A stretch of DNA of 64,000 nucleotides from Legionella gratiana (GTDB lineage Bacteria; Pseudomonadota; Gammaproteobacteria; Legionellales; Legionellaceae): the NCBI RefSeq assembly GCF_001467695.1, contig NZ_LNYE01000022.1, positions 318,058-382,057 on the forward strand. Direction: 5' to 3'. Of the stretch, positions 12,855 through 30,818 are shown piece after piece (position 1 is the stretch's first letter; the number at the start of each line of letters is the position of its first letter). The notes beneath the pieces are model-generated. The model had not been told where the DNA came from and did not search any database. It saw nothing but the letters and a program-made list of their open reading frames with translations. Both the position numbers and the translations under genes were made by a program.

Positions 12855-13847
12855 ATGAAAGCACAAACAATATCCTCTTTTGGCGATTGTTCCGTTTTTG
12901 AAACGATTGAACTTCCCAAACCTACAATTAAACCAGGTTATGTTTTGATTCGTGTTGAAGCAACTAGTGTTAATCCTGTTGATTGCAAGGTACGCGCTGG
13001 AAAATACAGTCAAATTTCTCCTCCATTTCCTGCAATTCTGCACAGTGATGTAGCCGGAATTATTGAAGAAGTTGGGGCCAATGTTACCGAATTTTCAGTA
13101 GGTGATGAAGTTTATGGATGCGCCGGTGGATTTAAAGAGGAAAGTGGTGCATTAGCCGAGTATATGCTTGCTGATGCACGATTAATTGCTAAAAAGCCTA
13201 AGACATTGAGCATGGTAGAAGCAGCTGCCTTACCCTTAGTTACTATCACCGCTTGGGAAGCATTGTTTGAAAAAATAAAAATTAAACCAGGGCAAAAAGT
13301 ATTAATCCATGCTGGAGTTGGTGGAGTTGGACATATTGCCATTCAGTTAGCAAAATGGGCAGGTGCTGAAGTATATACCACTGTATCTTCTCTAGATAAA
13401 GCAGAAATTGCAAAATCGCTTGGAGCAAAAGAAGCCATTAATTATAGAGATGAATCGGTTCAAGATTATGTTGCTCGATTAACTCATGGTGTCGGATTTG
13501 ATGTGGTTTTTGACACCGTTGGCGGAGACAACCTTAACCAATCATTAGCTGCAGTTTCTCTATATGGGAATGTAATCAGTATTCAGGCCTCAGCCATATA
13601 CGATCTTTCACCCTTGCATGCAAAATCCGCCAGCTTACACGCTGTTTTTATGTTATTACCTTTGCTTCATAATCTACAGCGTGAACGTCATGGATCGATT
13701 TTAAAACAAATTGCAAGTCTTGTAGATGATGGTTATTTGAAACCACTTATCGATCCCCATCTTTTTTATTATGAGAATGTTGATAAAGCACATGCTTTAC
13801 TTGAGTCAGGAAAAGCAATGGGTAAAGTTGTTGTACAAGCGTACTAA
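12855..13847 (+). CDS. Quinone-oxidoreductase-like zinc-independent MDR protein
   Basis: NAD(P)H-dependent medium-chain dehydrogenase/reductase of 330 residues. It has an N-terminal GroES-like domain (NPVDCKVRAGKY, HSDVAG) and a Rossmann domain with the nucleotide-binding loop HAGVGGVGHIAIQLAKWAGA around 150-170. Catalytic and structural zinc Cys clusters of true alcohol dehydrogenases are absent, pointing to the quinone oxidoreductase/zeta-crystallin subgroup that reduces quinones or enones. The start is supported by TTAGGAG upstream. It seems monocistronic and is closed by a palindrome shared with the converging gene. Confidence 0.85.
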   Translation: MKAQTISSFGDCSVFETIELPKPTIKPGYVLIRVEATSVNPVDCKVRAGKYSQISPPFPAILHSDVAGIIEEVGANVTEFSVGDEVYGCAGGFKEESGALAEYMLADARLIAKKPKTLSMVEAAALPLVTITAWEALFEKIKIKPGQKVLIHAGVGGVGHIAIQLAKWAGAEVYTTVSSLDKAEIAKSLGAKEAINYRDESVQDYVARLTHGVGFDVVFDTVGGDNLNQSLAAVSLYGNVISIQASAIYDLSPLHAKSASLHAVFMLLPLLHNLQRERHGSILKQIASLVDDGYLKPLIDPHLFYYENVDKAHALLESGKAMGKVVVQAY

Positions 13848-13848
13848 A

Positions 13849-13903
13849 TAACGTGAGTTCGACATAAACGGCATAGAAATACCCTTTATGTCGCTACACG
13901 ACC
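13849..13903. repeat. TAACGTGAGTTCG palindromic repeat, B-type copy
   Basis: Stem CGACATAAA (13860-13868) with TTTATGTCG (13885-13893), preceded by ATAACGTGAGTT. It lies between two convergent genes and reaches into the 3' end of the cysZ-like gene, so it may act as a two-way terminator. Confidence 0.65.
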
Positions 13904-14647
13904 TTTAGACCCAATACGACGCATTTTAAGAGAGGGAGTTCGTGTTTCACAGTAAAGAATAGTACTTGCAACGACTGCAGCAGGCATGACTAAAATATTA
14001 ATGATCGGTATAAGGCTTGCGAGATTAATAGAGCATCCTAATCCTAATGATCGCATTTTATTATGGGTAACTTCCTGCCGCATTTCTTTAAAACCCACTA
14101 AATTATTATCCATAGCAAAATCTTGATATTGAATACTTAACATCCATGCATTAAAAATAAACCATAACAAAGGATAAATTGGTTGTAATAAAGGGACAAA
14201 AAATAAAATACCAACCCCAAAAAAACGAGGGAGGAAATAGCCAAGAAATTCCATTTGACGTTTCAAACTGCGAAGAATCATTTTATATAAGGGTATTATT
14301 GGAATAACACTTCCATAAAGTAGGTGTTGTGTTTTCTCAGCCAATATGCCGTTTAAAGGAGCTGCTATTACATTAAAGACTGCAGTAAACAGAGATAGAA
14401 ACATTAAGAAAAAACCAAGGATAAAAATAATAAAAAATAAGGTACTTAGAAAACTTAACCAAGATGGCAATTGATTCAGATAATGATATGAATAAGGAAG
14501 TAAATAATGATAGATTAAGTAAAAGAGCCCAGCGAACATTAAAAAATTCAGTACTAAGGGCAATATAATAAAACGCTTTAATCCTTGAGTAAAAAGGAGA
14601 CGAATTCCTCGTAACAAATAAAATGCACCCTGCCAAAAATGCTTCAT
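13886..14647 (-). CDS. CysZ/EI24-family inner-membrane protein
   Basis: Integral membrane protein of 253 residues of the EI24/CysZ type. Hydrophobic segments occur around 27-50, 64-100, 150-175 and 205-230. The region FNVIAAPLNGILAEKTQ in the middle is typical of the family, which in E. coli assists sulfate uptake. No cysteine-biosynthesis genes adjoin, so sulfate transport is a family-based guess. The 3' end overlaps a palindromic repeat. Confidence 0.75.
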   Translation of the reverse strand: MKHFWQGAFYLLRGIRLLFTQGLKRFIILPLVLNFLMFAGLFYLIYHYLLPYSYHYLNQLPSWLSFLSTLFFIIFILGFFLMFLSLFTAVFNVIAAPLNGILAEKTQHLLYGSVIPIIPLYKMILRSLKRQMEFLGYFLPRFFGVGILFFVPLLQPIYPLLWFIFNAWMLSIQYQDFAMDNNLVGFKEMRQEVTHNKMRSLGLGCSINLASLIPIINILVMPAAVVASTILYCETRTPSLKMRRIGSKGRVAT

Positions 14648-21277: not shown

Positions 21278-21289
21278 ATAATCCCCAAG

Positions 21290-21330
21290 AAAGCAGTTGA
21301 CCTCTATTACGAAATCCAACTGCTTTTTTT
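21290..21330 (+). terminator. Intrinsic terminator of pncB-pncA
   Basis: 10-bp stem AAAGCAGTTG (21290-21299) / CAACTGCTTT (21317-21326), then four more T. The stem sequence is of the same CAGTTG type as the dispersed C-type repeat. Confidence 0.8.
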
Positions 21331-21336
21331 AGGATA
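21317..21336 (+). repeat. 20-bp direct repeat, left copy, flanking the ACP gene
   Basis: CAACTGCTTTTTTTAGGATA, identical to 21641-21660. It includes the terminator's right arm and T-run. Confidence 0.8.
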
Positions 21337-21369
21337 ATAAGATGGCTCATAGTAAAACAGGAAAATCTG

Positions 21370-21609
21370 ATGGAAATTCAGCACATTAAAAATGAAGTAA
21401 AACTCTTTTTACTCAAATCTTTTAGAATTAAGGATATTGGTTATTCAGATAATATTTTTGATACAGGCGCAATGCACTCTTTATTTTTTATTCAATTGTT
21501 AGTTTTTATAGAGAAGAAATATAAAATTGATCTTGAGGTCGGTGAATTTGATCCAAATCAGTTAACGAGTATTGATGCTATCGCGGGCTTTATTTCCAGT
21601 AAGCTATAA
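21370..21609 (+). CDS. Stand-alone acyl/peptidyl carrier protein
   Basis: 79-residue carrier protein. The attachment Ser for phosphopantetheine is in the motif MHSLFFIQLL (Ser37); the usual Asp before the Ser is His here, a divergent but known pattern in discrete carriers. The C-terminal helix (SIDAIAGFISSK) is typical. It is the first gene of a locus with a dehydrogenase, an acyl-CoA dehydrogenase-like protein and an adenylation enzyme, so it is the likely carrier for seryl to aminomalonyl conversion (ZmaH-like). The gene sits exactly between two 20-bp direct repeats. Confidence 0.82.
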   Translation: MEIQHIKNEVKLFLLKSFRIKDIGYSDNIFDTGAMHSLFFIQLLVFIEKKYKIDLEVGEFDPNQLTSIDAIAGFISSKL

Positions 21610-21640
21610 TACTGTGATAAAGTTTGGCTCTATGAATAGT

Positions 21641-21660
21641 CAACTGCTTTTTTTAGGATA
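21641..21660 (+). repeat. 20-bp direct repeat, right copy
   Basis: Identical to 21317-21336, 324 bp away. Its AGGATA end serves as the probable ribosome-binding site for the next gene (GTG at 21669, 8 bases away). Confidence 0.8.
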
Positions 21661-21668
21661 CAGAGTGG

Positions 21669-22532
21669 GTGCAGGACATGAAACAAAAAAAACTTACTAT
21701 TCTTGGTTCGGGTACAATGGGTTCAGGTATCGCACAACTTTTCGCGCAATGCGGATTTTTTGTCACCTTGATTGATAATCGCCAATCTCAATTAGATAAG
21801 GCAAAAACCACCATAGAAAAAAATTTACACTATCTCGTATTAATTCAAAATTTACCATCGAAACATTCTATTGAACCAATATTGGCATCAATTTCTTTTA
21901 CAACAAAACTAGATGCACTCAAGCAATCCGAATACATCATTGAAAATATCCCTGAAAATTGGGAACAAAAAAAAACCTTATATCAGGAATTAAATGAACA
22001 ATGCAGCTCAACCTGTATTTTTGGAGTAAACACATCCTCCATATCCATTACTAAAATAGCATCGCTCGTTGAGCACCCTCAACGCGTTATAGGTGTTCAC
22101 TTTATGAACCCAGCACCAATAATGCCTATGGTAGAGGTAATTAAAGGATATCACACTGACGAATCAACAATAGAAAAAACCAGATCGTTACTTGATCAAG
22201 TACATAAAAAAATGATCGTAGTTAAAGATTCTGTTGGTTTTGTGAGCAATCGTGCAATGATGATTTTTATTAATGAAGCCATTTTTATGATCCAAGAAAA
22301 CATTGCATCAATCGAAGACATCGATATTCTATTTAAGCAATGTTTTGGGCATAAAATGGGACCGCTGCATACTGCAGATTTAATTGGTTTAGATACGGTT
22401 CTCTATTCTTTAGAAACAATATATTCAGAGCTAAACGATCCGAAGTATAGGCCATGCTGGTTATTAAAAAATATGGTAGATGCAGGGCTTCTTGGACAAA
22501 AAACTAAAAAAGGATTTTATCAATATGAATAA
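21669..22532 (+). CDS. 3-hydroxyacyl-CoA dehydrogenase-like enzyme acting on carrier-bound substrate
   Basis: 287 residues with an N-terminal NAD-binding Rossmann loop GSGTMGSGIAQLFA and the 3-hydroxybutyryl-CoA dehydrogenase pattern (VNTSSISI, GVHFMNPAPIMPMVEV, KDSVGFVSNR). In zwittermicin-type clusters the homolog (ZmaG) oxidises the hydroxymethyl of seryl-ACP. A start at GTG 21669 is favoured by AGGATA; ATG 21678 is the alternative. It follows the ACP gene and is 11 bp before the acyl-CoA dehydrogenase-like gene, so it is co-transcribed. Confidence 0.82.
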   Translation: MQDMKQKKLTILGSGTMGSGIAQLFAQCGFFVTLIDNRQSQLDKAKTTIEKNLHYLVLIQNLPSKHSIEPILASISFTTKLDALKQSEYIIENIPENWEQKKTLYQELNEQCSSTCIFGVNTSSISITKIASLVEHPQRVIGVHFMNPAPIMPMVEVIKGYHTDESTIEKTRSLLDQVHKKMIVVKDSVGFVSNRAMMIFINEAIFMIQENIASIEDIDILFKQCFGHKMGPLHTADLIGLDTVLYSLETIYSELNDPKYRPCWLLKNMVDAGLLGQKTKKGFYQYE

Positions 22533-22543
22533 GGAGAAGAATT

Positions 22544-23668
22544 TTGCCCAATTACCAACCTCGATATCTGAAACAACAACGATTCTTTAATCGATTCATA
22601 GAACATAATCTTCACCCCCATGCGAAAACTTTTGATAAAGAACAAAACATTCCGCGTCATTTTTTTTATACATTAGCCCAAAATGGTTTTTTAGGTGCTT
22701 GCATTCCTAAACGATTTGGTGGACAACAATGGGATGAATTGACTATTGGCATCATGCATGAATCATTTGCAAAAGAGCTTTGTTCCATGGCAAATATTTT
22801 AACAGTATTGGGCATGGTCAGTAAGTCACTCGTACAATTTGGTTCGGAAGTACAGAAACAAACCTGGTTACCCCGGATTGCATCAGGAGTAACCTTAGCT
22901 GCATTAGCTTTAACCGAACCTAATATTGGTAGTGATTTGGAACATGTTGAAACTCAGTTGTTGGATACAAATGGTGAATTTATTCTAACAGGAAGTAAAA
23001 AATACATTACCCTAGGACAAATTGCTGATTTGTTTTTAGTTTTAGCAAACTGCCAAGGACAACCAACTGCGATTTTAGTTGAAAAAAACACTCCAGGCTT
23101 AATTATTTCACCGATACCTAATTTTTTAGGTCTACGCTCTAATATGCTGGCAGAAATTTTTTTTGATAATTGCCGCATCCCTAAAACAAATCTATTAGGT
23201 AGTATTGGTATGGGTTTATCCTATGTTATTCAAGCGGCTTTAGACGAAGGACGCTATACAACAGCGTATGGATGTGTTGGTTTAGGACAAGCTTGCTTGG
23301 ATGCAGTCCGCGATTACGCTCAAGAAAGAAAACAATTCGATCGTACCTTAGATGAGCATCAGTTAATTCAAAAAATGATAACTGAAATGGTTGTTCAGGT
23401 TAAAGCGGCCCGAGAATTGTGTTTTTATGCGGGAGAGCTTAGACAGCAAAAAAATCCAGCCTACATTGCTGAAACATTAGTGGCGAAATACGTTGCTTCA
23501 AAAATGGTTGTTTTTGTCTCTAATCATGCATTGCAAATATTTGGTGCAGCTGGCTTTAATGACACTTATCCTGTTGAACGATATTATAGAGATGCTAAAG
23601 TAATGGAGATCATCGAAGGAACCTCACAAATACACGAAATTCTCATTTCAAAGCTTTGCATCAATTAA
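22544..23668 (+). CDS. Acyl-CoA dehydrogenase-like flavoenzyme
   Basis: 374-residue FAD enzyme of the acyl-CoA dehydrogenase fold. ALTEPNIGSDLEH near residue 125 and YTTAYGCVGLGQA near 240 match flavin and substrate segments. The C-terminal ERYYRDAKVMEIIEGTSQIHEI is typical, with the glutamate at the catalytic-base position. Homologs ZmaI and FkbI oxidise carrier-bound hydroxyacyl groups to the carboxylate level when building aminomalonyl- or methoxymalonyl-ACP. The start is TTG with a strong AAGGAG 8 bases before it; no ATG fits the conserved N-terminus. Confidence 0.82.
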   Translation: MPNYQPRYLKQQRFFNRFIEHNLHPHAKTFDKEQNIPRHFFYTLAQNGFLGACIPKRFGGQQWDELTIGIMHESFAKELCSMANILTVLGMVSKSLVQFGSEVQKQTWLPRIASGVTLAALALTEPNIGSDLEHVETQLLDTNGEFILTGSKKYITLGQIADLFLVLANCQGQPTAILVEKNTPGLIISPIPNFLGLRSNMLAEIFFDNCRIPKTNLLGSIGMGLSYVIQAALDEGRYTTAYGCVGLGQACLDAVRDYAQERKQFDRTLDEHQLIQKMITEMVVQVKAARELCFYAGELRQQKNPAYIAETLVAKYVASKMVVFVSNHALQIFGAAGFNDTYPVERYYRDAKVMEIIEGTSQIHEILISKLCIN

Positions 23669-23687
23669 TAGAGAGTGTTTTTACAAA

Positions 23688-25229
23688 ATGAAGTCATCTG
23701 ATCAGTTCACAACAATTTGCTCCTTATTCGAAGAACAGGTAAAGCAATATCCAGAAAATACTGCTATTTATCTGGAGGATCGTCAAATTTCATATGATGC
23801 TTTTAATAAAAAAGCCAATCAATATGCAAGATATCTGCGCAGAAAAGGTCTGCCATTAAATGGAATTGTCGGCATTCAACTCATGCGTTCTTTTGAAATG
23901 CTTATGGCAATCTTTGCGGTCTTAAAGGCAGGAGGTGCCTATTTACCGTTGGATCCTCTAGCCCCTGCAATTAGAAATCAAACTATCCTCGAAGAGAGTC
24001 AAATAAAATTTCTAATTGTTGAAGATAATACATTATTGACAGCAAAATCGGGGTTAAATGATAAAGATAATCTTCAAATATTAAGCATCTGTGAAAATGT
24101 AAGCCATGAAAAATGCCATAATTTAAATGTGATCCGAGAAAAACAAGATTTAGCCTATGTGATGTATACATCAGGTACTACAGGAACACCTAAAGGGGTC
24201 ATGATTTCACACCAGGCCCTAGTGAATCGAATTCTATGGATGCAAAACACTTTTCCATTACAAAGACACGACGTTGTATTTCATAAAACACACCCTTGTT
24301 TTGACATTTCTGTTTGGGAAACCTGTTGGTGGTCTGTTGTGGGAGCCGGGGTAGCTCTGTTACCACCTAGAAAAGAACATGATATTAAATTATTTATTCG
24401 TATGATTGAACAATATCAGTTGAACGTTATTCATTTTGTACCTTCTGTATTACGTATATTTTTAAATTATATCGAACAAGATTTTTCGTTGAGTCGCTTA
24501 AGATCTTTAAAGTATGTGTTTGCCAGTGGAGAGGCACTAGACGCGAGAAGCGTGAATTTATTTAATAAGCTATTTCAAGATCAAGAAGCATTATTGGTCA
24601 ATTTATACGGTCCCACAGAAGCCACAATAGATGTTTCTTATTTTATTTGTGAAAAACACAAGCATTATCGCACTATTCCAATTGGAAAGCCCATCCAGAA
24701 TATTCAACTTTTCGTGTTAGATGAACAGCTTCATTCAACCGGCTTTGAACCCGGAGAACTATTCATTTCTGGAGTTGGATTAGCTCAAGGTTATTTAAAT
24801 AATTCAGCGCTTACTCAGACATCGTTTATAGACAATCCTTATCTTCCAGGAGAAAAAATGTATCGTACTGGAGATATAGTCTGTTGGAATAAGAAGAATG
24901 AATTAGTATTTTTAGGTCGCAAAGATGATCAGATAAAACTGCATGGTATACGTATTGAATTAGGAGAAATACACTATCATTTATTAGAACATCCCAATAT
25001 TCAAGATGCAGTCGTTATCTGTGAAAAGGTGGATTTTCTTGATCATAGGATAGTCGCATTCTTAATTGCTAATGACCAACAAGTAGCGCTTAGCAGTGCT
25101 GAACTTAAATCATTTTTAAAAACTAGGATTCCAGATTATATGATTCCGGAGCATTACATATGGTTAAGTGCATTGCCTATAAAAGAAAATGGAAAAATAG
25201 ATAAAGAGAAACTATTGAGTTTCATTTAG
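23688..25229 (+). CDS. Stand-alone NRPS-type adenylation enzyme, predicted serine-specific
   Basis: 513-residue amino-acid adenylation domain without condensation or carrier domains. Core motifs run in order: YTSGTTGTPKG at 159-169, FDISVWE, NLYGPTEATID, YRTGD, GRKDDQIKLHGIRIELGE, and NGKIDK near the end. By alignment with GrsA/EntF positions the pocket reads Asp206, Ile207, Trp210, His249, Phe278, Ser280, Leu306, Ile314, Asp315, Lys503. This is the serine code of EntF except for two conservative Val/Ile changes. The predicted reaction is Ser plus ATP to seryl-AMP, then loading on the discrete ACP two genes upstream (ZmaJ-like). Ends the four-gene same-strand run. Confidence 0.86.
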   Translation: MKSSDQFTTICSLFEEQVKQYPENTAIYLEDRQISYDAFNKKANQYARYLRRKGLPLNGIVGIQLMRSFEMLMAIFAVLKAGGAYLPLDPLAPAIRNQTILEESQIKFLIVEDNTLLTAKSGLNDKDNLQILSICENVSHEKCHNLNVIREKQDLAYVMYTSGTTGTPKGVMISHQALVNRILWMQNTFPLQRHDVVFHKTHPCFDISVWETCWWSVVGAGVALLPPRKEHDIKLFIRMIEQYQLNVIHFVPSVLRIFLNYIEQDFSLSRLRSLKYVFASGEALDARSVNLFNKLFQDQEALLVNLYGPTEATIDVSYFICEKHKHYRTIPIGKPIQNIQLFVLDEQLHSTGFEPGELFISGVGLAQGYLNNSALTQTSFIDNPYLPGEKMYRTGDIVCWNKKNELVFLGRKDDQIKLHGIRIELGEIHYHLLEHPNIQDAVVICEKVDFLDHRIVAFLIANDQQVALSSAELKSFLKTRIPDYMIPEHYIWLSALPIKENGKIDKEKLLSFI

Positions 25230-25480: not shown

Positions 25481-26797
25481 ATGAATGTAAATAACCACGC
25501 ACACAAAGTTGCTATTGTAGGTATGGCTGTAAAATTTCCTGGAGCCAATGATCTTGATGAGTATTGGGATCTATTGAGGTCTGGAAAAGAAGCTGTAAGT
25601 AAATTTTCCGCAGAACAATTACAACGATCAGGTATTTCAGAACAATTAATCGCTGATCCCAATTACAAACCATACAGAGGAATATTAGATGACTTAGAAT
25701 CATTTGATAGTCCTCCGTTTAAAAGTACCACCAAAAATTTTGAATTGTTAGGCGTTCAAGGCAAGGTTATGTCACATTTAACTTATCGTGCTTTGAGTAC
25801 CATGAGAAGCCAGGTAAATAATGCAAATAACTTCATTAAAAATACGGCTGTGTATATTGGCGCAAATAATCAACCCGCTTCTCATTTCTTTGGAGCAGCG
25901 TACTACCAAGCTATTGATACTCAAAAAGCGATAGAAAGATATTATTCAAAAGTAATCGCACCTTATATTTCTTATCAATTTGGATTTCAAGGAAGTTCTA
26001 TTGATTTATATACGGCGTGTTCCTCTTCTTTGACAGCGGTGATACAAAGTTGTCGAGAGTTAAATAGTTATCAATGTGATATGGCAATTGCAGGTGCGTG
26101 CTTAATCGATTTGCCTCAAGAAGTAGGATATGTGTATGAAGAGAACGGATTATTTTCTTCTGACGGCCATTGCCATTCTTTTGATGCTTCAGCATGCGGC
26201 ACTTTATACTCAAATGGTGCTGGGGTGGTTGTTTTAAAACGACTTGAAGATGCAATTGCAGATAATGACCTAATCCACGCTGTTATTATCGGGGCTGCTA
26301 TGAATAACGATGGTAATTCTTCAAAAGAAGGATTTATGGCCCCCGGGATTCATGGCCAATATAGTTGCTTGCAATCCGCCTGGAAAAATGCAGCTATTGA
26401 GCCAGGTGATCTTGATTATATTGCAGCCCATGGCGCCTCAACCAAATTAGGTGATGCAACCGAAATATATGCACTAAAAAAAGCATTCAAAGACGTTACC
26501 AAAACAAATCGTTGTCCAATAAGCTCCGTAATAAGTAATTTAGGTCATACGGGTATTGTATCCGGGATGGCCTCAATCATCAAAACCGTACTTATGCTCA
26601 AAAATAAAGCTATTGTCCCTTCAATTAACTTTGAAACTCCGAACCCAGATTTTATGTTGGACGACTCGCCTCTATATATTGCCACTCAATTTCAAGATTT
26701 TCCTGAACTAAAAAAACACTATTTAGCTGGTGTTTCTAGCTATGGTGCAGGTGGAAGTAACACCCATCTTGTTTTGCGCAGCTATGATGAAAACTAA
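25481..26797 (+). CDS. Stand-alone ketosynthase (type I PKS-like KS)
   Basis: Condensing enzyme of 438 residues with the complete triad: Cys180 in TACSSS, His317 in AAHGASTKLGD and His356 in NLGHTG. The N-terminus KVAIVGMAVKFPGA is typical of modular-PKS KS domains. No acyltransferase, carrier or reductive domain is attached, so it needs separate partners. The aminomalonyl-ACP machinery just upstream is the obvious extender source. It is separated by 250 bp and probably has its own promoter; that gap has a GAACATGTTC palindrome at 25318-25327. The frame is open upstream to 25433, but ATG 25481 fits the conserved start. Confidence 0.84.
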   Translation: MNVNNHAHKVAIVGMAVKFPGANDLDEYWDLLRSGKEAVSKFSAEQLQRSGISEQLIADPNYKPYRGILDDLESFDSPPFKSTTKNFELLGVQGKVMSHLTYRALSTMRSQVNNANNFIKNTAVYIGANNQPASHFFGAAYYQAIDTQKAIERYYSKVIAPYISYQFGFQGSSIDLYTACSSSLTAVIQSCRELNSYQCDMAIAGACLIDLPQEVGYVYEENGLFSSDGHCHSFDASACGTLYSNGAGVVVLKRLEDAIADNDLIHAVIIGAAMNNDGNSSKEGFMAPGIHGQYSCLQSAWKNAAIEPGDLDYIAAHGASTKLGDATEIYALKKAFKDVTKTNRCPISSVISNLGHTGIVSGMASIIKTVLMLKNKAIVPSINFETPNPDFMLDDSPLYIATQFQDFPELKKHYLAGVSSYGAGGSNTHLVLRSYDEN

Positions 26798-27265
26798 CGT
26801 CTGACAAACGTTCACAGAGTTTGTATATTCGGTCATTGCAAGCCTGGAAAATTTGAACTGTCATTATTTTACTAATCGATAAACAGCAGTTTGGCCTGCG
26901 AATAAAGAGTCTAGAGGGTGATGGACTTCTCAATACCGTCGCCTTCCGCAAAAGCAGAAGGTCTAAAAGTAACAAAGCTTGCTCTAACTTCACCTTGCAG
27001 TCATACCCTATTAGACCCCCTGCTTGCGCAGAGGGTGACGGACTTCTCAATACCGTCGCCTTCCACAAAAGCAGAAGGTCTAAAAGTAACAAAATTTTGC
27101 TCTAAACTTCACCTTGCAGCCATACGCTATTAGACAACCTCTTGATCATATCTCATCAAGAGACAGTTGCGAGCAACCAGGCTTGATTTTCTTTTTGTTT
27201 TTCAACAAAAACATTTTGGCTCATCTAATAGCCGTTTAAAAGGGAGGATGAATCCATATCATTGC
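26798..27265. other. 468-bp convergent intergenic region filled by repeats
   Basis: Between the convergent KS and PaaK-like genes. Contains the 117-bp tandem repeat (26913 onward) and AT-rich flanks. Reading frames in it run through the repeat and show no protein family. Confidence 0.6.
26913..27140. repeat. Tandem duplication of a 117-bp intergenic element
   Basis: Unit one starts at 26913 (AGAGGGTGATGGACTTCTCA), unit two at 27030 (AGAGGGTGACGGACTTCTCA). Both contain GTCGCCTTCC, a CAAAAGCAGAAGGTCTAAAA hairpin and a TTCACCTTGCAG segment, with few differences. A reverse-orientation relative lies at 58286-58412. Confidence 0.75.
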
Positions 27266-28741
27266 TTACGAATTCGACTTCAAGGGTATAAAACGATTGA
27301 GTTTACCCGAATACAAATATTTAATTTCAGGTACTTCAATGATCGTCACTGTGGCATTATGAAAACCTACTTTGCTTAATCGTAAACGTATATTCTCTTG
27401 CAATTGGAGCTTATTTATAAAACCAGTGGTTACAACCCTAATATTAACCCCATCTATTGTTTGTTCGACCTGATATTCTTGAATATTTTTTTCGGTCAAA
27501 AGCGCTCCTAAGAAAAGTGAATGATGTACAAAAATATTGCCAGGATAATTAAAGTCACATCCAGGTCGACCTTTAGGTGCTTTTATAAGCTGGTGTTGGA
27601 TGCCACAATCACAGGTTTTATTTAAAAATAAAATCTCATCTGAATTTTCATAGCGAATTAGTGGCAAAGTATAATTATACAAATTAGTTATATATACTTT
27701 GGAAGCCATAATTCCTTTCCCAACAGGGCGATTTTGTTCATCCAGAGGTTCAACAATGCATTGATCATCATTCAAATGCATCTCATCTGTATTTGCGCGA
27801 CAATTTAACCCCACCATTCCCTCAGTACAGCCGAATACATTAAAAATATCCACGTTAGGCCAAGTTTCTTTAATTAAATCCAGGGTTTGTTCAAAAAGGG
27901 GTTCCCCACCAACAAAAATAAACTTAGGTTCAATTTTTATTTGCCCTTTTTGAATGAGTTGACATACTTTGTGAATATAGGAAGGAGAAGCGGTTAAGAT
28001 ATCAGGCATAATTTGATTGAGACGAGTAATGACTACATTTAATGGTGTTATAGCCATAGGCAGAAAATACATATTTTCATTGTATCGCTCAAAGGTTTTT
28101 GCTAAAGAATAAGCTGCAATTGCTGTGTTTGTTACAAACAAGCTAACAATTTTTGAATTGGCATTTAGTTTTGTAGTTACCATTTGCGTGCGTTCATAAT
28201 TGTAGAGTGGATAGCGGATAAATGCAGTGCGAAATGTAATCCACTCATCCCAATCATAAATAAATACACCTCGTTTCCCACTACTTCCTCCAGTGGACAC
28301 GACCTGATAATGGGAGAACAGATACAATGTGTCGATCTTATCATTTTTTTTACTCAGATGTTTTTCAATCAAAGCTAATGAAAGCTTAGGATTGGTGACA
28401 ATTGCATCCCAATTTTCCATTAAAATGGTTTTATTTATAGTAGGAAGCTCCTCTAGTCGTTCTTTGGTAAAGTTCTCTATGTTGATTTTTGCTAGCGTTT
28501 TTTTATACCAAGGAGATTTTGATTTTGCATGCAGTAATAATGCTCTTAGTCTTTGATTGATTAGGTCTTCTAGTATTTCTTTGGAATAGTAGACGGCTTC
28601 TTGATGCTTTTGAAACTGTTTCTCGTAATCGTGAATGTGGTGCGCTATTAATTCAACTGGGGATATTGACCTATTATTCCTCTCATTGATTTGAGGAACC
28701 AAATGATTGAGTCTATTTATTAAAAAGCGTAAAAAAGACAT
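27266..28741 (-). CDS. PaaK-like adenylate-forming enzyme
   Basis: 491 residues of the phenylacetate-CoA-ligase-like branch of adenylating enzymes. The P-loop-like motif STGGSSGKRGVF lies near 148-160. FVGGEPL and FNVFGCTEGMVG follow, and YENSDEI is the A7-like aspartate region. The N-terminus (RLRALLLHAKSKSPWYKKTL) is the usual family start. It activates a carboxylic acid as acyl-AMP; whether transfer is to CoA or a carrier is unknown. The start has AAGGTGATT. It probably forms the end of a minus-strand group with the oxygenase and methyltransferase and converges on the KS gene, so likely part of the same natural-product locus. Confidence 0.72.
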   Translation of the reverse strand: MSFLRFLINRLNHLVPQINERNNRSISPVELIAHHIHDYEKQFQKHQEAVYYSKEILEDLINQRLRALLLHAKSKSPWYKKTLAKINIENFTKERLEELPTINKTILMENWDAIVTNPKLSLALIEKHLSKKNDKIDTLYLFSHYQVVSTGGSSGKRGVFIYDWDEWITFRTAFIRYPLYNYERTQMVTTKLNANSKIVSLFVTNTAIAAYSLAKTFERYNENMYFLPMAITPLNVVITRLNQIMPDILTASPSYIHKVCQLIQKGQIKIEPKFIFVGGEPLFEQTLDLIKETWPNVDIFNVFGCTEGMVGLNCRANTDEMHLNDDQCIVEPLDEQNRPVGKGIMASKVYITNLYNYTLPLIRYENSDEILFLNKTCDCGIQHQLIKAPKGRPGCDFNYPGNIFVHHSLFLGALLTEKNIQEYQVEQTIDGVNIRVVTTGFINKLQLQENIRLRLSKVGFHNATVTIIEVPEIKYLYSGKLNRFIPLKSNS

Positions 28742-28887: not shown

Positions 28888-29733
28888 CTATATCCTTTTT
28901 GCATAGATCATATGATGATTAAAACCCAGATCCGCTAAAATTGGATTTCTATCGACTAAAGTGAGATAACCTTGTTTTTGTAAGTACAAATTAAGTTTTT
29001 CAACTCGATGTTCAATATCATGAATTTCAATACTTAACTGTTTAATTATAGAAAATTGCTCGGGTTTAATACTCTCTATAACCTCTACTTCAGCCCCCTC
29101 AACATCCACTTTTAAAAAATCAATATGATCTATATGATGTTGTTCGATAAAACGTCCTAACGAAGTCAACCTACATTTAACTTTAGTTTCTACTGTTTGC
29201 TTTCTATAGTTTCTTTTAATTAGGTAATTCCGTAAAAAGGGAAAAAACTTTAACTGATAATAGAGAAATTTATTTTGCCAAGGGAGTAGCTTTAATAAAG
29301 TATTATAATCCAATAAAGGTTGAAAATTTGAAATAATCTTATCTTGGGGTCTGTAAGTTGCGGTACCTACACTTTTTCCAAATAGAGTAAACTCAACGTC
29401 ACAATCATAATCAACATGACTGATCCCTGTATTGTATAGGTGTATCTTATGCTTAAAACGCTCTAAATTTTTTTGCAAGCAAGAAAAAGTCATCGGAATA
29501 GGCTCAAAACAGTAGATCTCAGCATCATAATTACAATGTTGCAGGGCAAATAATGAAAAAATACCAATATTTGCCCCTACATCAACAATGATTGACCCAG
29601 GGTTTAAACTAAGAAAATCAAGCAAATAAGTATTTTGTGAAAAAACTTCATAGATTAATCCCTGAGTTTCCAGTTCATTTAAAAAATACAGATCTCCGAT
29701 CACAAATTTTTTATGCGATATCTCAGGAAACAT
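28888..29733 (-). CDS. FkbM-family methyltransferase
   Basis: 281-residue SAM-dependent O-methyltransferase-like protein. The SAM-binding motif VDVGANIGIFSLFAL lies near 52-66, the acidic residue of motif II in CFEPIP, and the FkbM-specific DFLKVDVEGAEVEVI near 208. ATG 29733 is chosen over 29751 because AAGGAGG lies 6 bases before it. It overlaps the oxygenase gene end by 11 bp, so the two are translationally linked. FkbM proteins methylate hydroxyls on polyketides, peptides or glycans. Confidence 0.8.
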   Translation of the reverse strand: MFPEISHKKFVIGDLYFLNELETQGLIYEVFSQNTYLLDFLSLNPGSIIVDVGANIGIFSLFALQHCNYDAEIYCFEPIPMTFSCLQKNLERFKHKIHLYNTGISHVDYDCDVEFTLFGKSVGTATYRPQDKIISNFQPLLDYNTLLKLLPWQNKFLYYQLKFFPFLRNYLIKRNYRKQTVETKVKCRLTSLGRFIEQHHIDHIDFLKVDVEGAEVEVIESIKPEQFSIIKQLSIEIHDIEHRVEKLNLYLQKQGYLTLVDRNPILADLGFNHHMIYAKRI

Positions 29734-30787
29734 CACTATCCTCCTTATCATAAGGATACTTGGTCATTCCAGCTAAAATTAATCGCTCTCCAACATGAGG
29801 TGTTTTTCCATGCAGACAGGAATAATTATCGATAACCATAAGATCTCCTGGTTGCCAGGAAATTAAATGCGTATTTTTTTGAATGGCTTCAGCAATTAAC
29901 AAAGATTCTTGTTTTGAAAAAGACGTACCATCTCCATAAAAAATCAAATAAGGATGGAAGTTATTTCGCAATAAAATAAAAGAAACAATCGGGTTTTTAA
30001 TGATTGAATTAACATAATCACTAATACCATTACAATAATGAGTAAGCTGATTGGATTGATTGAACCATACTAATTCACCTGTTAGAGGATGCTTTCTACT
30101 GGCAGGAAGAAATACCTCTGTTACTAAATCATTTCCTTTCCATTTAAATTGTTGTTTCGTTTGCTGAAGTATCGTTTCAACCTTATTTTTTTCATGGGTA
30201 TTAAATTCTTCCATCCATGTCTTAAATACAGGCGCTACGCCCAGTGATTGAATGATTTTATATTTTATTCCATAACTGTAAAAATGTCGGCGATATAAAA
30301 CACCTTTTGACTGTAGTTTTTGTTGTAAAAATTCTGGAAGAGAAAGCCAAATTTGATGTCCATCAGCAAGCGAAGTACATCCTCCTTGTTCAGCCGCTTT
30401 AATGCAGTTAAAAAAAATATGAGTGGGAAACTCAGCGCTATAGGACTTTTCATTATGTAATGCAATAGGATAACTTGCAGGATAATTTGATGAAGTAGAT
30501 ATACCCTCTTGAATTTTTGTTCTTGGAACAGGACAAAAGTCATAATTATAATTTGCTCCTAAATCACAGGCTTGAATAGCCTTACTAAAGTGATCAGGGG
30601 TATTAATATTAAATCCACGAAAAATAATGGCATGATAATGAAGCAAATGCTCTTTGAATAAAGTATTTTCTTCTTTAAGAAACTGCACTAAACAGTTAAT
30701 GTCTGCTGGTTTATCAGTTGTAGGTTGTATCATTAATGGTAATTTTTGCTTATTTAAAAAAGTATAACGGGGCTGATTATGCATCAT
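29723..30787 (-). CDS. Fe(II)/2-oxoglutarate oxygenase, clavaminate-synthase/SyrP-like
   Basis: 354 residues of the TauD-like double-stranded beta-helix superfamily. The iron facial triad is His111-Asn-Glu113 in ALHNEKSYS, plus His in CLHGKTPHVGERLILAG near the end, where the Arg binds 2-oxoglutarate. HxE rather than HxD is the clavaminate synthase/SyrP-type pattern. Such enzymes hydroxylate amino-acid side chains, often on carriers. GGGAG lies 5 bases before ATG 30787 (30784 also possible). First gene of the minus-strand oxygenase-methyltransferase pair. Confidence 0.8.
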   Translation of the reverse strand: MMHNQPRYTFLNKQKLPLMIQPTTDKPADINCLVQFLKEENTLFKEHLLHYHAIIFRGFNINTPDHFSKAIQACDLGANYNYDFCPVPRTKIQEGISTSSNYPASYPIALHNEKSYSAEFPTHIFFNCIKAAEQGGCTSLADGHQIWLSLPEFLQQKLQSKGVLYRRHFYSYGIKYKIIQSLGVAPVFKTWMEEFNTHEKNKVETILQQTKQQFKWKGNDLVTEVFLPASRKHPLTGELVWFNQSNQLTHYCNGISDYVNSIIKNPIVSFILLRNNFHPYLIFYGDGTSFSKQESLLIAEAIQKNTHLISWQPGDLMVIDNYSCLHGKTPHVGERLILAGMTKYPYDKEDSDVS

Positions 30788-30818
30788 AAAATCTCCCAAT
30801 TACTTCTAGGTTAACCTT

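What the first reader, a model, noticed from the sequence alone, without database searches (positions are those of the whole stretch)
21370..25229. Complete aminomalonyl-ACP cassette with a predicted serine-loading adenylation enzyme
Seen: ACP, 3-hydroxyacyl-CoA dehydrogenase-like, acyl-CoA dehydrogenase-like and adenylation genes in one run; the adenylation pocket reads D-I-W-H-F-S-L-I-D-K. Known: EntF serine code is D-V-W-H-F-S-L-V-D-K, and zwittermicin ZmaG-ZmaH-ZmaI-ZmaJ make aminomalonyl-ACP from serine with exactly these four activities. Inference: this locus makes the rare aminomalonyl extender.
Basis: partly seen in the sequence, partly recalled or inferred. Interest (0 to 1): 0.9.

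Follow-up and report, generated by a model that had tools for sequence, protein, structure and literature searches.

The report
Legionella serine-to-aminomalonyl gene cassette with ketosynthase
A conserved six-gene set in Legionella looks able to turn serine into a rare amino-bearing building block and to hand it to its own single condensing enzyme instead of a large assembly line, which points to an unknown small nitrogen-containing molecule.

Summary
The four genes at 21370-25229 are real and intact: a discrete ACP, a 3-hydroxyacyl-CoA-dehydrogenase-like enzyme, an acyl-CoA-dehydrogenase-like enzyme (ACAD) and a stand-alone adenylation enzyme with pocket DIWHFSLIDK. The genome is a Legionella. 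Twelve other loci (11 Legionellaceae, one from another family at 48%) keep the serine pocket (I/V at one site) and the four enzymes' catalytic motifs. Of 18 further ACAD cassettes examined, 17 carry FkbH, the hydroxymalonyl/methoxymalonyl marker; serine-linked ones form their own clade. Aminomalonyl-ACP formation is the best reading, biochemically unshown.

A stand-alone ketosynthase (25481-26797) and a PaaK-like adenylating enzyme (27266-28741, minus) belong to the unit: ACAD and ketosynthase orthologs occur in the same 12 of 140 Legionellaceae genomes. No acyltransferase or modular PKS was found in the locus; the genome's three acyltransferases have the CoA-type motif, unlike zwittermicin's ZmaF. 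I infer direct use by the ketosynthase. In the Legionella clade it has lost an otherwise conserved active-site lysine (Ile in 20 of 20 readable relatives; Lys in 87 of 87 readable others). A distant AT-less PKS, present in all 12 genomes, is the main rival user. Product unknown. New variant of a known kind.

The parts
21370..21609 (+). Discrete acyl carrier protein, 79 aa (ZmaH-like role); phosphopantetheine serine in FDTGAMHSLFF
   Evidence: PF00550 over cut-off; Ser kept in 12 of 12 other loci; A6 alignment of 11 rows
21678..22532 (+). 3-hydroxyacyl-CoA-dehydrogenase-like seryl-ACP dehydrogenase (ZmaG-like role); mechanical ORF starts at GTG 21669
   Evidence: PF02737/PF00725; NTS, H..E and N motifs kept in 12 of 12 (their catalytic meaning recalled); clade with other serine-linked copies
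22544..23668 (+). Acyl-CoA-dehydrogenase-like enzyme for the aldehyde-to-acid step (ZmaI-like role); TTG start behind AAGGAG
   Evidence: PF02771/02770/00441; Glu motif (I/V)IEGT kept in 12 of 12; tree
23688..25229 (+). Stand-alone serine adenylation enzyme (ZmaJ-like role), code DIWHFSLIDK
   Evidence: TIGR01733 over cut-off; code kept in 12 of 12 but for I/V at one site
25481..26797 (+). Stand-alone ketosynthase; Cys and both His kept, active-site Lys replaced by Ile (SVISNLGH); mechanical ORF starts at GTG 25433
   Evidence: PF00109/PF02801; same 12 of 140 genomes as the ACAD; K/I census; AlphaFold pLDDT 86.9 and fold matches to PKS ketosynthases
27266..28741 (-). PaaK/F390-synthetase-like adenylate-forming enzyme, convergent with the KS
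   Evidence: TIGR02304 100 bits, below its cut-off 252; PDB profile and fold matches to phenylacetate-CoA ligases; next to the cassette in 10 of 11 fetched Legionellaceae loci (in L044 it appears as two pieces)
28888..29751 (-). FkbM-family methyltransferase, optional neighbour
   Evidence: PF05050/TIGR01444; beside the PaaK-like gene also in L045 and L171 (in two pieces)
29723..30799 (-). TauD-family 2OG-Fe(II) dioxygenase, optional neighbour
   Evidence: PF02668; beside the PaaK-like gene also in L045 and L171; elsewhere in the genome in several relatives
21278..21338 (.). Terminator-like inverted repeat that separates the nicotinamidase gene from the cassette
   Evidence: 82% complementary arms of 22 nt, T run read; not among the 6 sites of the consensus scan

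Best explanation
A small trans-acting biosynthetic unit. The stand-alone adenylation enzyme activates L-serine and loads the discrete ACP; the HAD-like enzyme oxidises seryl-ACP to the aldehyde and the ACAD-like enzyme oxidises that to aminomalonyl-ACP. The adjacent stand-alone ketosynthase then takes an acyl starter, probably one activated by the PaaK-like adenylating enzyme, and condenses it with aminomalonyl directly on the ACP with loss of CO2, giving an alpha-amino-beta-ketoacyl-ACP; no acyltransferase is needed. Seen directly: gene content, pocket, motifs, co-occurrence. Inferred from known families: serine loading and two-step oxidation. Inference only: direct KS use, the starter, and the released product.
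For: Families; serine code and catalytic motifs of the four enzymes kept in 12 of 12 other loci; serine-linked ACAD and HAD each on one side of one branch against FkbH-linked ones, support 100/100 (13 vs 17 rows) and 98/100 (13 vs 15 rows); no FkbH or AT hit at E 1e-4, one query each, in the window, the 11 Legionellaceae loci or L147; ACAD and KS orthologs in the same 12 of 140 genomes, hypergeometric 1.4e-17 before allowing for kinship; L147, another family, has KS-ACP-HAD-ACAD-A in one run at 45-60%; own genome's 3 AT domains, none in the window, all read GHSxG while ZmaF, the aminomalonyl AT, reads GYSLG (PMC4207774, passages); low dN/dS on all six genes.
Against: No enzyme activity is shown. 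The KS lacks the active-site Lys in the Legionella clade, so it may not be an ordinary decarboxylative condenser. The PaaK-like gene is absent beside the broken G081 cassette, only 53-55% identical in G053, in two pieces in L044, and has homologs (33-52%) in 17 genomes without the cassette. All 12 cassette genomes also hold a homolog of an AT-less PKS that could be the real user. I saw no dedicated release enzyme among the genes scanned.
Confidence: 0.6

Rival explanations
1. The cassette makes aminomalonyl-ACP for a distant AT-less modular PKS (own genome C22:408-419 kb, 3783 aa, 3 KS, no AT, C-terminal condensation domain); the stand-alone KS is an acyl shuttle or a helper.
For: A homolog of that PKS is in 12 of 12 cassette genomes and in 36 of 128 others (Fisher 1e-6 over the family, 0.07 within the genus); it lies about 60-70 kb from the cassette on the same contig in the own genome and in G136, whose PKS is 87% identical; in G081 and G015 it lies beside a PaaK-like homolog.
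Against: Three of the four closest PKS homologs (87-88%; G125, G080, G105; the fourth is G136) are in genomes without the cassette; the genome's ATs are of the CoA type by motif; no modular PKS was hit in the 19 kb held around the L147 unit.
Confidence: 0.2
2. The KS is not an elongating enzyme: with its lysine gone it catalyses cyclisation, acyl transfer or chain release, as reported for the SalC and TAS1 ketosynthases (function recalled, partly from the PDB titles).
For: Ile replaces Lys in 20 of 20 readable clade members, against Lys in 87 of 87 readable others; SalC and TAS1 are among the fold matches.
Against: Cys and both His are kept; the L147 ortholog with the same partner genes keeps Lys; the best fold matches are PKS ketosynthases of modular systems; the SalC and TAS1 residues were not compared.
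Confidence: 0.15
3. Only seryl-ACP, or a dehydrogenated or aldehyde form of it, is made and used; full aminomalonyl is never formed.
For: No activity data; the ACP profile's only PDB match is the D-alanyl carrier protein, a plain amino-acid carrier.
Against: Both dehydrogenases keep their motifs and have low dN/dS and match the set that zwittermicin uses (PMC6395733, passages).
Confidence: 0.1

Closest known systems
Zwittermicin A aminomalonyl-ACP genes ZmaG/H/I/J (Bacillus cereus)
   Same: Serine-loading stand-alone A enzyme, discrete ACP, dehydrogenase pair with an ACAD (passages of PMC6395733)
   Different: Zwittermicin has the AT ZmaF (GYSLG; PMC4207774, passages) and modular PKS/NRPS; here neither was found in the locus and a stand-alone KS is fixed in the unit. 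Sequences not compared
Colibactin ClbD/E/F with the ClbH A domain and trans-AT ClbG (roles recalled)
   Same: Same four activities; the Peptide synthetase chain of 8xjz, probably ClbH, is the sixth-best PDB match of the A enzyme, and ClbC/ClbI are among KS fold matches
   Different: There a trans-AT feeds large PKS modules; here no AT was found and there is one KS. Colibactin genes were not fetched
FkbG-K type hydroxymalonyl/methoxymalonyl-ACP cassettes
   Same: ACP, 3HCDH and ACAD genes together; dehydrogenases 36-52% identical in the loci examined
   Different: They carry FkbH (HAD-IIIC) for glyceryl loading; here a serine A enzyme replaces it; separate clade
PaaK / F390-synthetase-like adenylate-forming enzymes
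   Same: Fold and C-terminal GK motif
   Different: 15-20% identical to the solved PaaKs listed; substrate unknown; fails the TIGR02304 cut-off

Membership tests
Aminomalonyl-ACP biosynthesis cassette (ZmaG/H/I/J type) | Stand-alone adenylation enzyme with serine pocket | tested here: met
   DIWHFSLIDK; 12 of 12 other loci the same but for I/V; GrsA positions and the EntF serine code recalled
Aminomalonyl-ACP biosynthesis cassette (ZmaG/H/I/J type) | Discrete ACP with phosphopantetheine serine | tested here: met
   PF00550 over cut-off; Ser kept in 12 of 12 and invariant in A6
Aminomalonyl-ACP biosynthesis cassette (ZmaG/H/I/J type) | 3HCDH-type plus ACAD-type dehydrogenases with intact catalytic motifs | tested here: met
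Aminomalonyl-ACP biosynthesis cassette (ZmaG/H/I/J type) | No glyceryl-loading FkbH in its place | tested here: met
   no FkbH hit in window, L044-L054, L147 with one FkbH query; the rest of the own genome was not searched for FkbH
Aminomalonyl-ACP biosynthesis cassette (ZmaG/H/I/J type) | Dehydrogenases group with Zma/guadinomine/Clb homologs | not tested
Aminomalonyl-ACP biosynthesis cassette (ZmaG/H/I/J type) | Serine activation and oxidation on the ACP | not testable with these tools
   biochemistry needed
Zwittermicin/colibactin-type use: an AT specific for aminomalonyl-ACP feeding a PKS module | ACP-type AT (GYSxG) in the locus or genome | tested here: not met
   0 AT hits in the window and 12 other loci with one AT query; PF00698 finds 3 ATs in the own genome, none in the window, and 3 of 3 read GHSxG
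Hydroxymalonyl/methoxymalonyl-ACP cassette | FkbH (HAD-IIIC) enzyme | tested here: not met
   present in 17 of 19 loci examined, the two without being L147 (serine-linked) and L070 (stretch ends early)
Ordinary Cys-His-His-Lys decarboxylating ketosynthase | Conserved Lys before x-N-x-GH | tested here: not met
   Ile in window and in 20 of 20 readable of 21 homologs at 72% or more; Lys in 87 of 87 readable of the 99 others listed

The most novel reading that the evidence does not exclude
An acyltransferase-free aminomalonyl pathway: a single stand-alone ketosynthase with a Lys-free active site condenses a PaaK-activated acid with aminomalonyl-ACP to an alpha-amino-beta-keto product, which on release loses CO2 to an alpha-aminoketone (a possible pyrazine or pyrrole precursor and signal molecule), spread among Legionella species including L. 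pneumophila strains.
Probability: 0.3. Interest if true: 0.75.

Novelty: new variant of a known kind. Interest (0 to 1): 0.55.

Why it matters
Aminomalonyl-ACP is one of the rarer polyketide building blocks, known to me mainly from large assembly lines with a dedicated acyltransferase. A compact set that keeps the whole route plus one ketosynthase, conserved in a dozen Legionellaceae genomes and found once outside the family, would be a minimal way of making amino-bearing ketides and a source of unknown small molecules in a genus with few characterised metabolites. The Lys-to-Ile ketosynthase also gives a natural test of which residues that chemistry needs.

Tried and rejected
Beta-oxidation operon: rejected; neither dehydrogenase passes the cut-off of any NCBIfam model listed, an ACP and an amino-acid A enzyme sit among them, and the ACAD is far from the other Legionellaceae ACADs listed (28-36%).

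Dlt-like D-alanine system: rejected; serine pocket and two dehydrogenases, though the ACP's only PDB match is a D-alanyl carrier.

Hydroxymalonyl cassette: rejected; no FkbH hit.

TauD and FkbM as core parts: not accepted; beside the PaaK-like gene only in the window, L045 and L171 of the loci looked at; TauD at 80-85% is elsewhere in G080, G105, G125, G136.

Against my reading and kept in view: three of the four closest homologs of the AT-less PKS lack the cassette but one (G136) has it; within the genus the PKS-cassette association is only p 0.07.
Full report
WHAT IS THERE. The dehydrogenases score below the cut-off of every NCBIfam model listed for them, so they are not named beta-oxidation enzymes. 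The pocket reads DIWHFSLIDK (positions by recall of GrsA). A terminator-like repeat at 21278-21338 separates the set from the NAD-salvage genes upstream. Downstream lie a ketosynthase (KS; 25481-26797, +) and, convergent, a PaaK/F390-synthetase-like adenylating enzyme (27266-28741, -).

WHOSE IT IS. The genome is a Legionella: the best named KS matches are L. bozemanae (92%) and L. pneumophila (91%) proteins. The species itself is not named by any search. Species named on KS clusters are L. bozemanae, pneumophila, oakridgensis, nagasakiensis, parisiensis, antarctica, sainthelensi and waltersii (120 of 973 matches listed). G128 is L. steigerwaltii (equal contig length). By equal contig length with proteins, G131 is probably L. 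norrlandica, G129 L. maioricensis, G123 L. steelei and G103 L. antarctica.

A CONSERVED SIX-GENE UNIT. ACAD orthologs (74% or more) are in 12 of 140 Legionellaceae genomes: 11 of 42 of the same genus, own included, and G081 of another genus (one search gives the same 12 among 143 of the order, plus G104's 36% match, which is a different, FkbH-type cassette). KS orthologs are in exactly the same 12. In the 11 fetched loci (L044-L054) ACP, HAD, ACAD, A and KS are together in 11 of 11 and the PaaK-like gene in 10 of 11. It is absent in L053 (G081), where ACAD and KS are each matched in two pieces, and in two pieces in L044. L054 has the same six genes in another arrangement. The NAD-salvage neighbours of the window have no hit in the stretches held for the 11 loci, so the window's site differs from theirs. 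Median dN/dS against 10 loci (L053 left out) is 0.074-0.155 for the six genes.

BEYOND THE FAMILY. Among 369 genomes of the class, 6 incl. own have an ACAD at E 1e-70. Of the five others, G172 (L147) has KS-ACP-HAD-ACAD-A in one run at 45, 46, 60, 55 and 48% identity, with a PPTase, an MFS exporter, a 2OG oxygenase and a second AMP-binding enzyme nearby. The other four are FkbH-type. Of 16 genomes of G172's order only G172 has such an ACAD.

AMINOMALONYL, NOT HYDROXYMALONYL. One search looked at 19 loci with such dehydrogenases: 17 carry FkbH, L147 does not, and L070's stretch ends too early to tell. These loci came from best ACAD matches and from the KS scan, not from an even sample. FkbH has no hit in the window, L044-L054 or L147. 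In trees the 13 serine-linked rows are one side of one branch against FkbH-linked rows: ACAD 13 vs 17 (100/100), HAD 13 vs 15 (98/100) (8 of 17 generic ACAD loci used as outgroup; L070 left out; long rows such as L055 are unsure; no Zma or Clb sequence was included). The zwittermicin scheme in print (passages of PMC6395733) uses the same activities.

HOW IT MAY BE USED. Zwittermicin uses a dedicated AT, ZmaF, with GYSLG instead of GHSxG (passages of PMC4207774). Here genome-wide family searches place no AT in the window, one KS, and no AMP-binding enzyme other than the two described, and BLAST with one AT, one PKS and one NRPS query finds in the stretches of the 11 Legionellaceae loci only the KS and A enzyme themselves, in L147 also a second AMP-binding enzyme and a partial KS. 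The genome's three AT domains read GHSIG, GHSLG and GHSLG. The simplest reading is that the KS takes aminomalonyl straight from the ACP, as fatty-acid ketosynthases take malonyl-ACP. The PaaK-like enzyme models well (pLDDT 88) and matches phenylacetate-CoA ligases; it could supply the starter. Its homologs elsewhere in Legionellaceae sit by a shared pair of genes in 7 of 12 loci fetched, in L164 a PvcA-like isonitrile-synthase-domain protein and an FMN dehydrogenase, and by an AT-less PKS in two, so it looks like a reusable activation module and its role here is inference.

AN ODD ACTIVE SITE. Cys and both His of the KS are kept, but the Lys before x-N-x-GH is Ile in the window, in 11 of 11 Legionellaceae loci and in 20 of 20 readable homologs at 72% or more (P0016 unreadable), against Lys in 87 of 87 readable others (12 unreadable). 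L147, with the same partners, keeps Lys. From recall, that Lys in E. coli FabB aids acyl transfer and decarboxylation, so the change may mean altered chemistry; I cannot say which.

MAIN RIVAL. A 3783-aa AT-less PKS (three KS, two KR, one DH, C-terminal condensation domain) has homologs in 48 of 140 genomes, among them all 12 with the cassette. Within the genus this is 11 of 11 against 23 of 31 (p 0.07). Of its four nearest homologs three lack the cassette and one, G136, has it at a like distance. It stays possible.

IN PRINT. Searches for aminomalonyl + Legionella (0 papers) and Legionella + F390 synthetase (0) found nothing; Legionella + biosynthetic gene cluster + polyketide gave 82 papers, 25 listed, none of whose titles or abstract starts names such a locus. 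In PMC5126622, the Legionella metabolite survey, the terms 'aminomalon' and 'ketosynthase' have 0 occurrences in the main text (sections 13 and 17 read); its supplementary cluster list was not readable here. Only open-licence papers are held.

Noticed in passing
window 26913-27093: A 64-nt near-perfect direct repeat (97%) with a second 36-nt repeat (89%) between the KS and the PaaK-like gene, spacing 117-119.
   Followed up: no
window 21317-21336 and 21641-21660: An identical 20-nt stretch, part of one arm of the terminator-like repeat, stands before the ACP and again before the HAD-like gene.
   Followed up: no
L163-L167, L169, L173: PaaK-like homologs (43-52%) lie by a shared pair of genes; in L164 these are a PvcA/DIT1-like isonitrile-synthase-domain protein and an FMN-dependent hydroxyacid dehydrogenase.
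   Followed up: partly
L152:3102-14453: AT-less PKS with C-terminal condensation domain, homologs in 48 of 140 Legionellaceae; in several genomes a TauD-like gene lies close to it.
   Followed up: partly
L171: In G081 a TauD gene, an FkbM gene in two pieces and a PaaK-like gene lie next to the AT-less PKS, far from that genome's broken aminomalonyl cassette.
   Followed up: partly
L055:7753-11042: One other Legionellaceae genome (G104) has an FkbH-type ACP/HAD/ACAD cassette next to a PKS, 29-41% identical: a separate extender-unit route in the family.
   Followed up: no
L147:1901-14300: Beside the five-gene unit of G172: a second AMP-binding enzyme, a 2OG-Fe(II) oxygenase, an MFS exporter, a PPTase, and a partial second KS at 13734-14300.
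   Followed up: partly
proteins P0016, P0022, P0024, P0029, P0030 with P0160, P0162, P0163, P0176, P0182: KS and ACAD (and in two cases PaaK-like P0256, P0262) hits share the same longest-contig lengths (6098, 16875, 12651, 24053, 24920), which suggests the unit also lies in uncultured lineages; contigs not seen.
   Followed up: no
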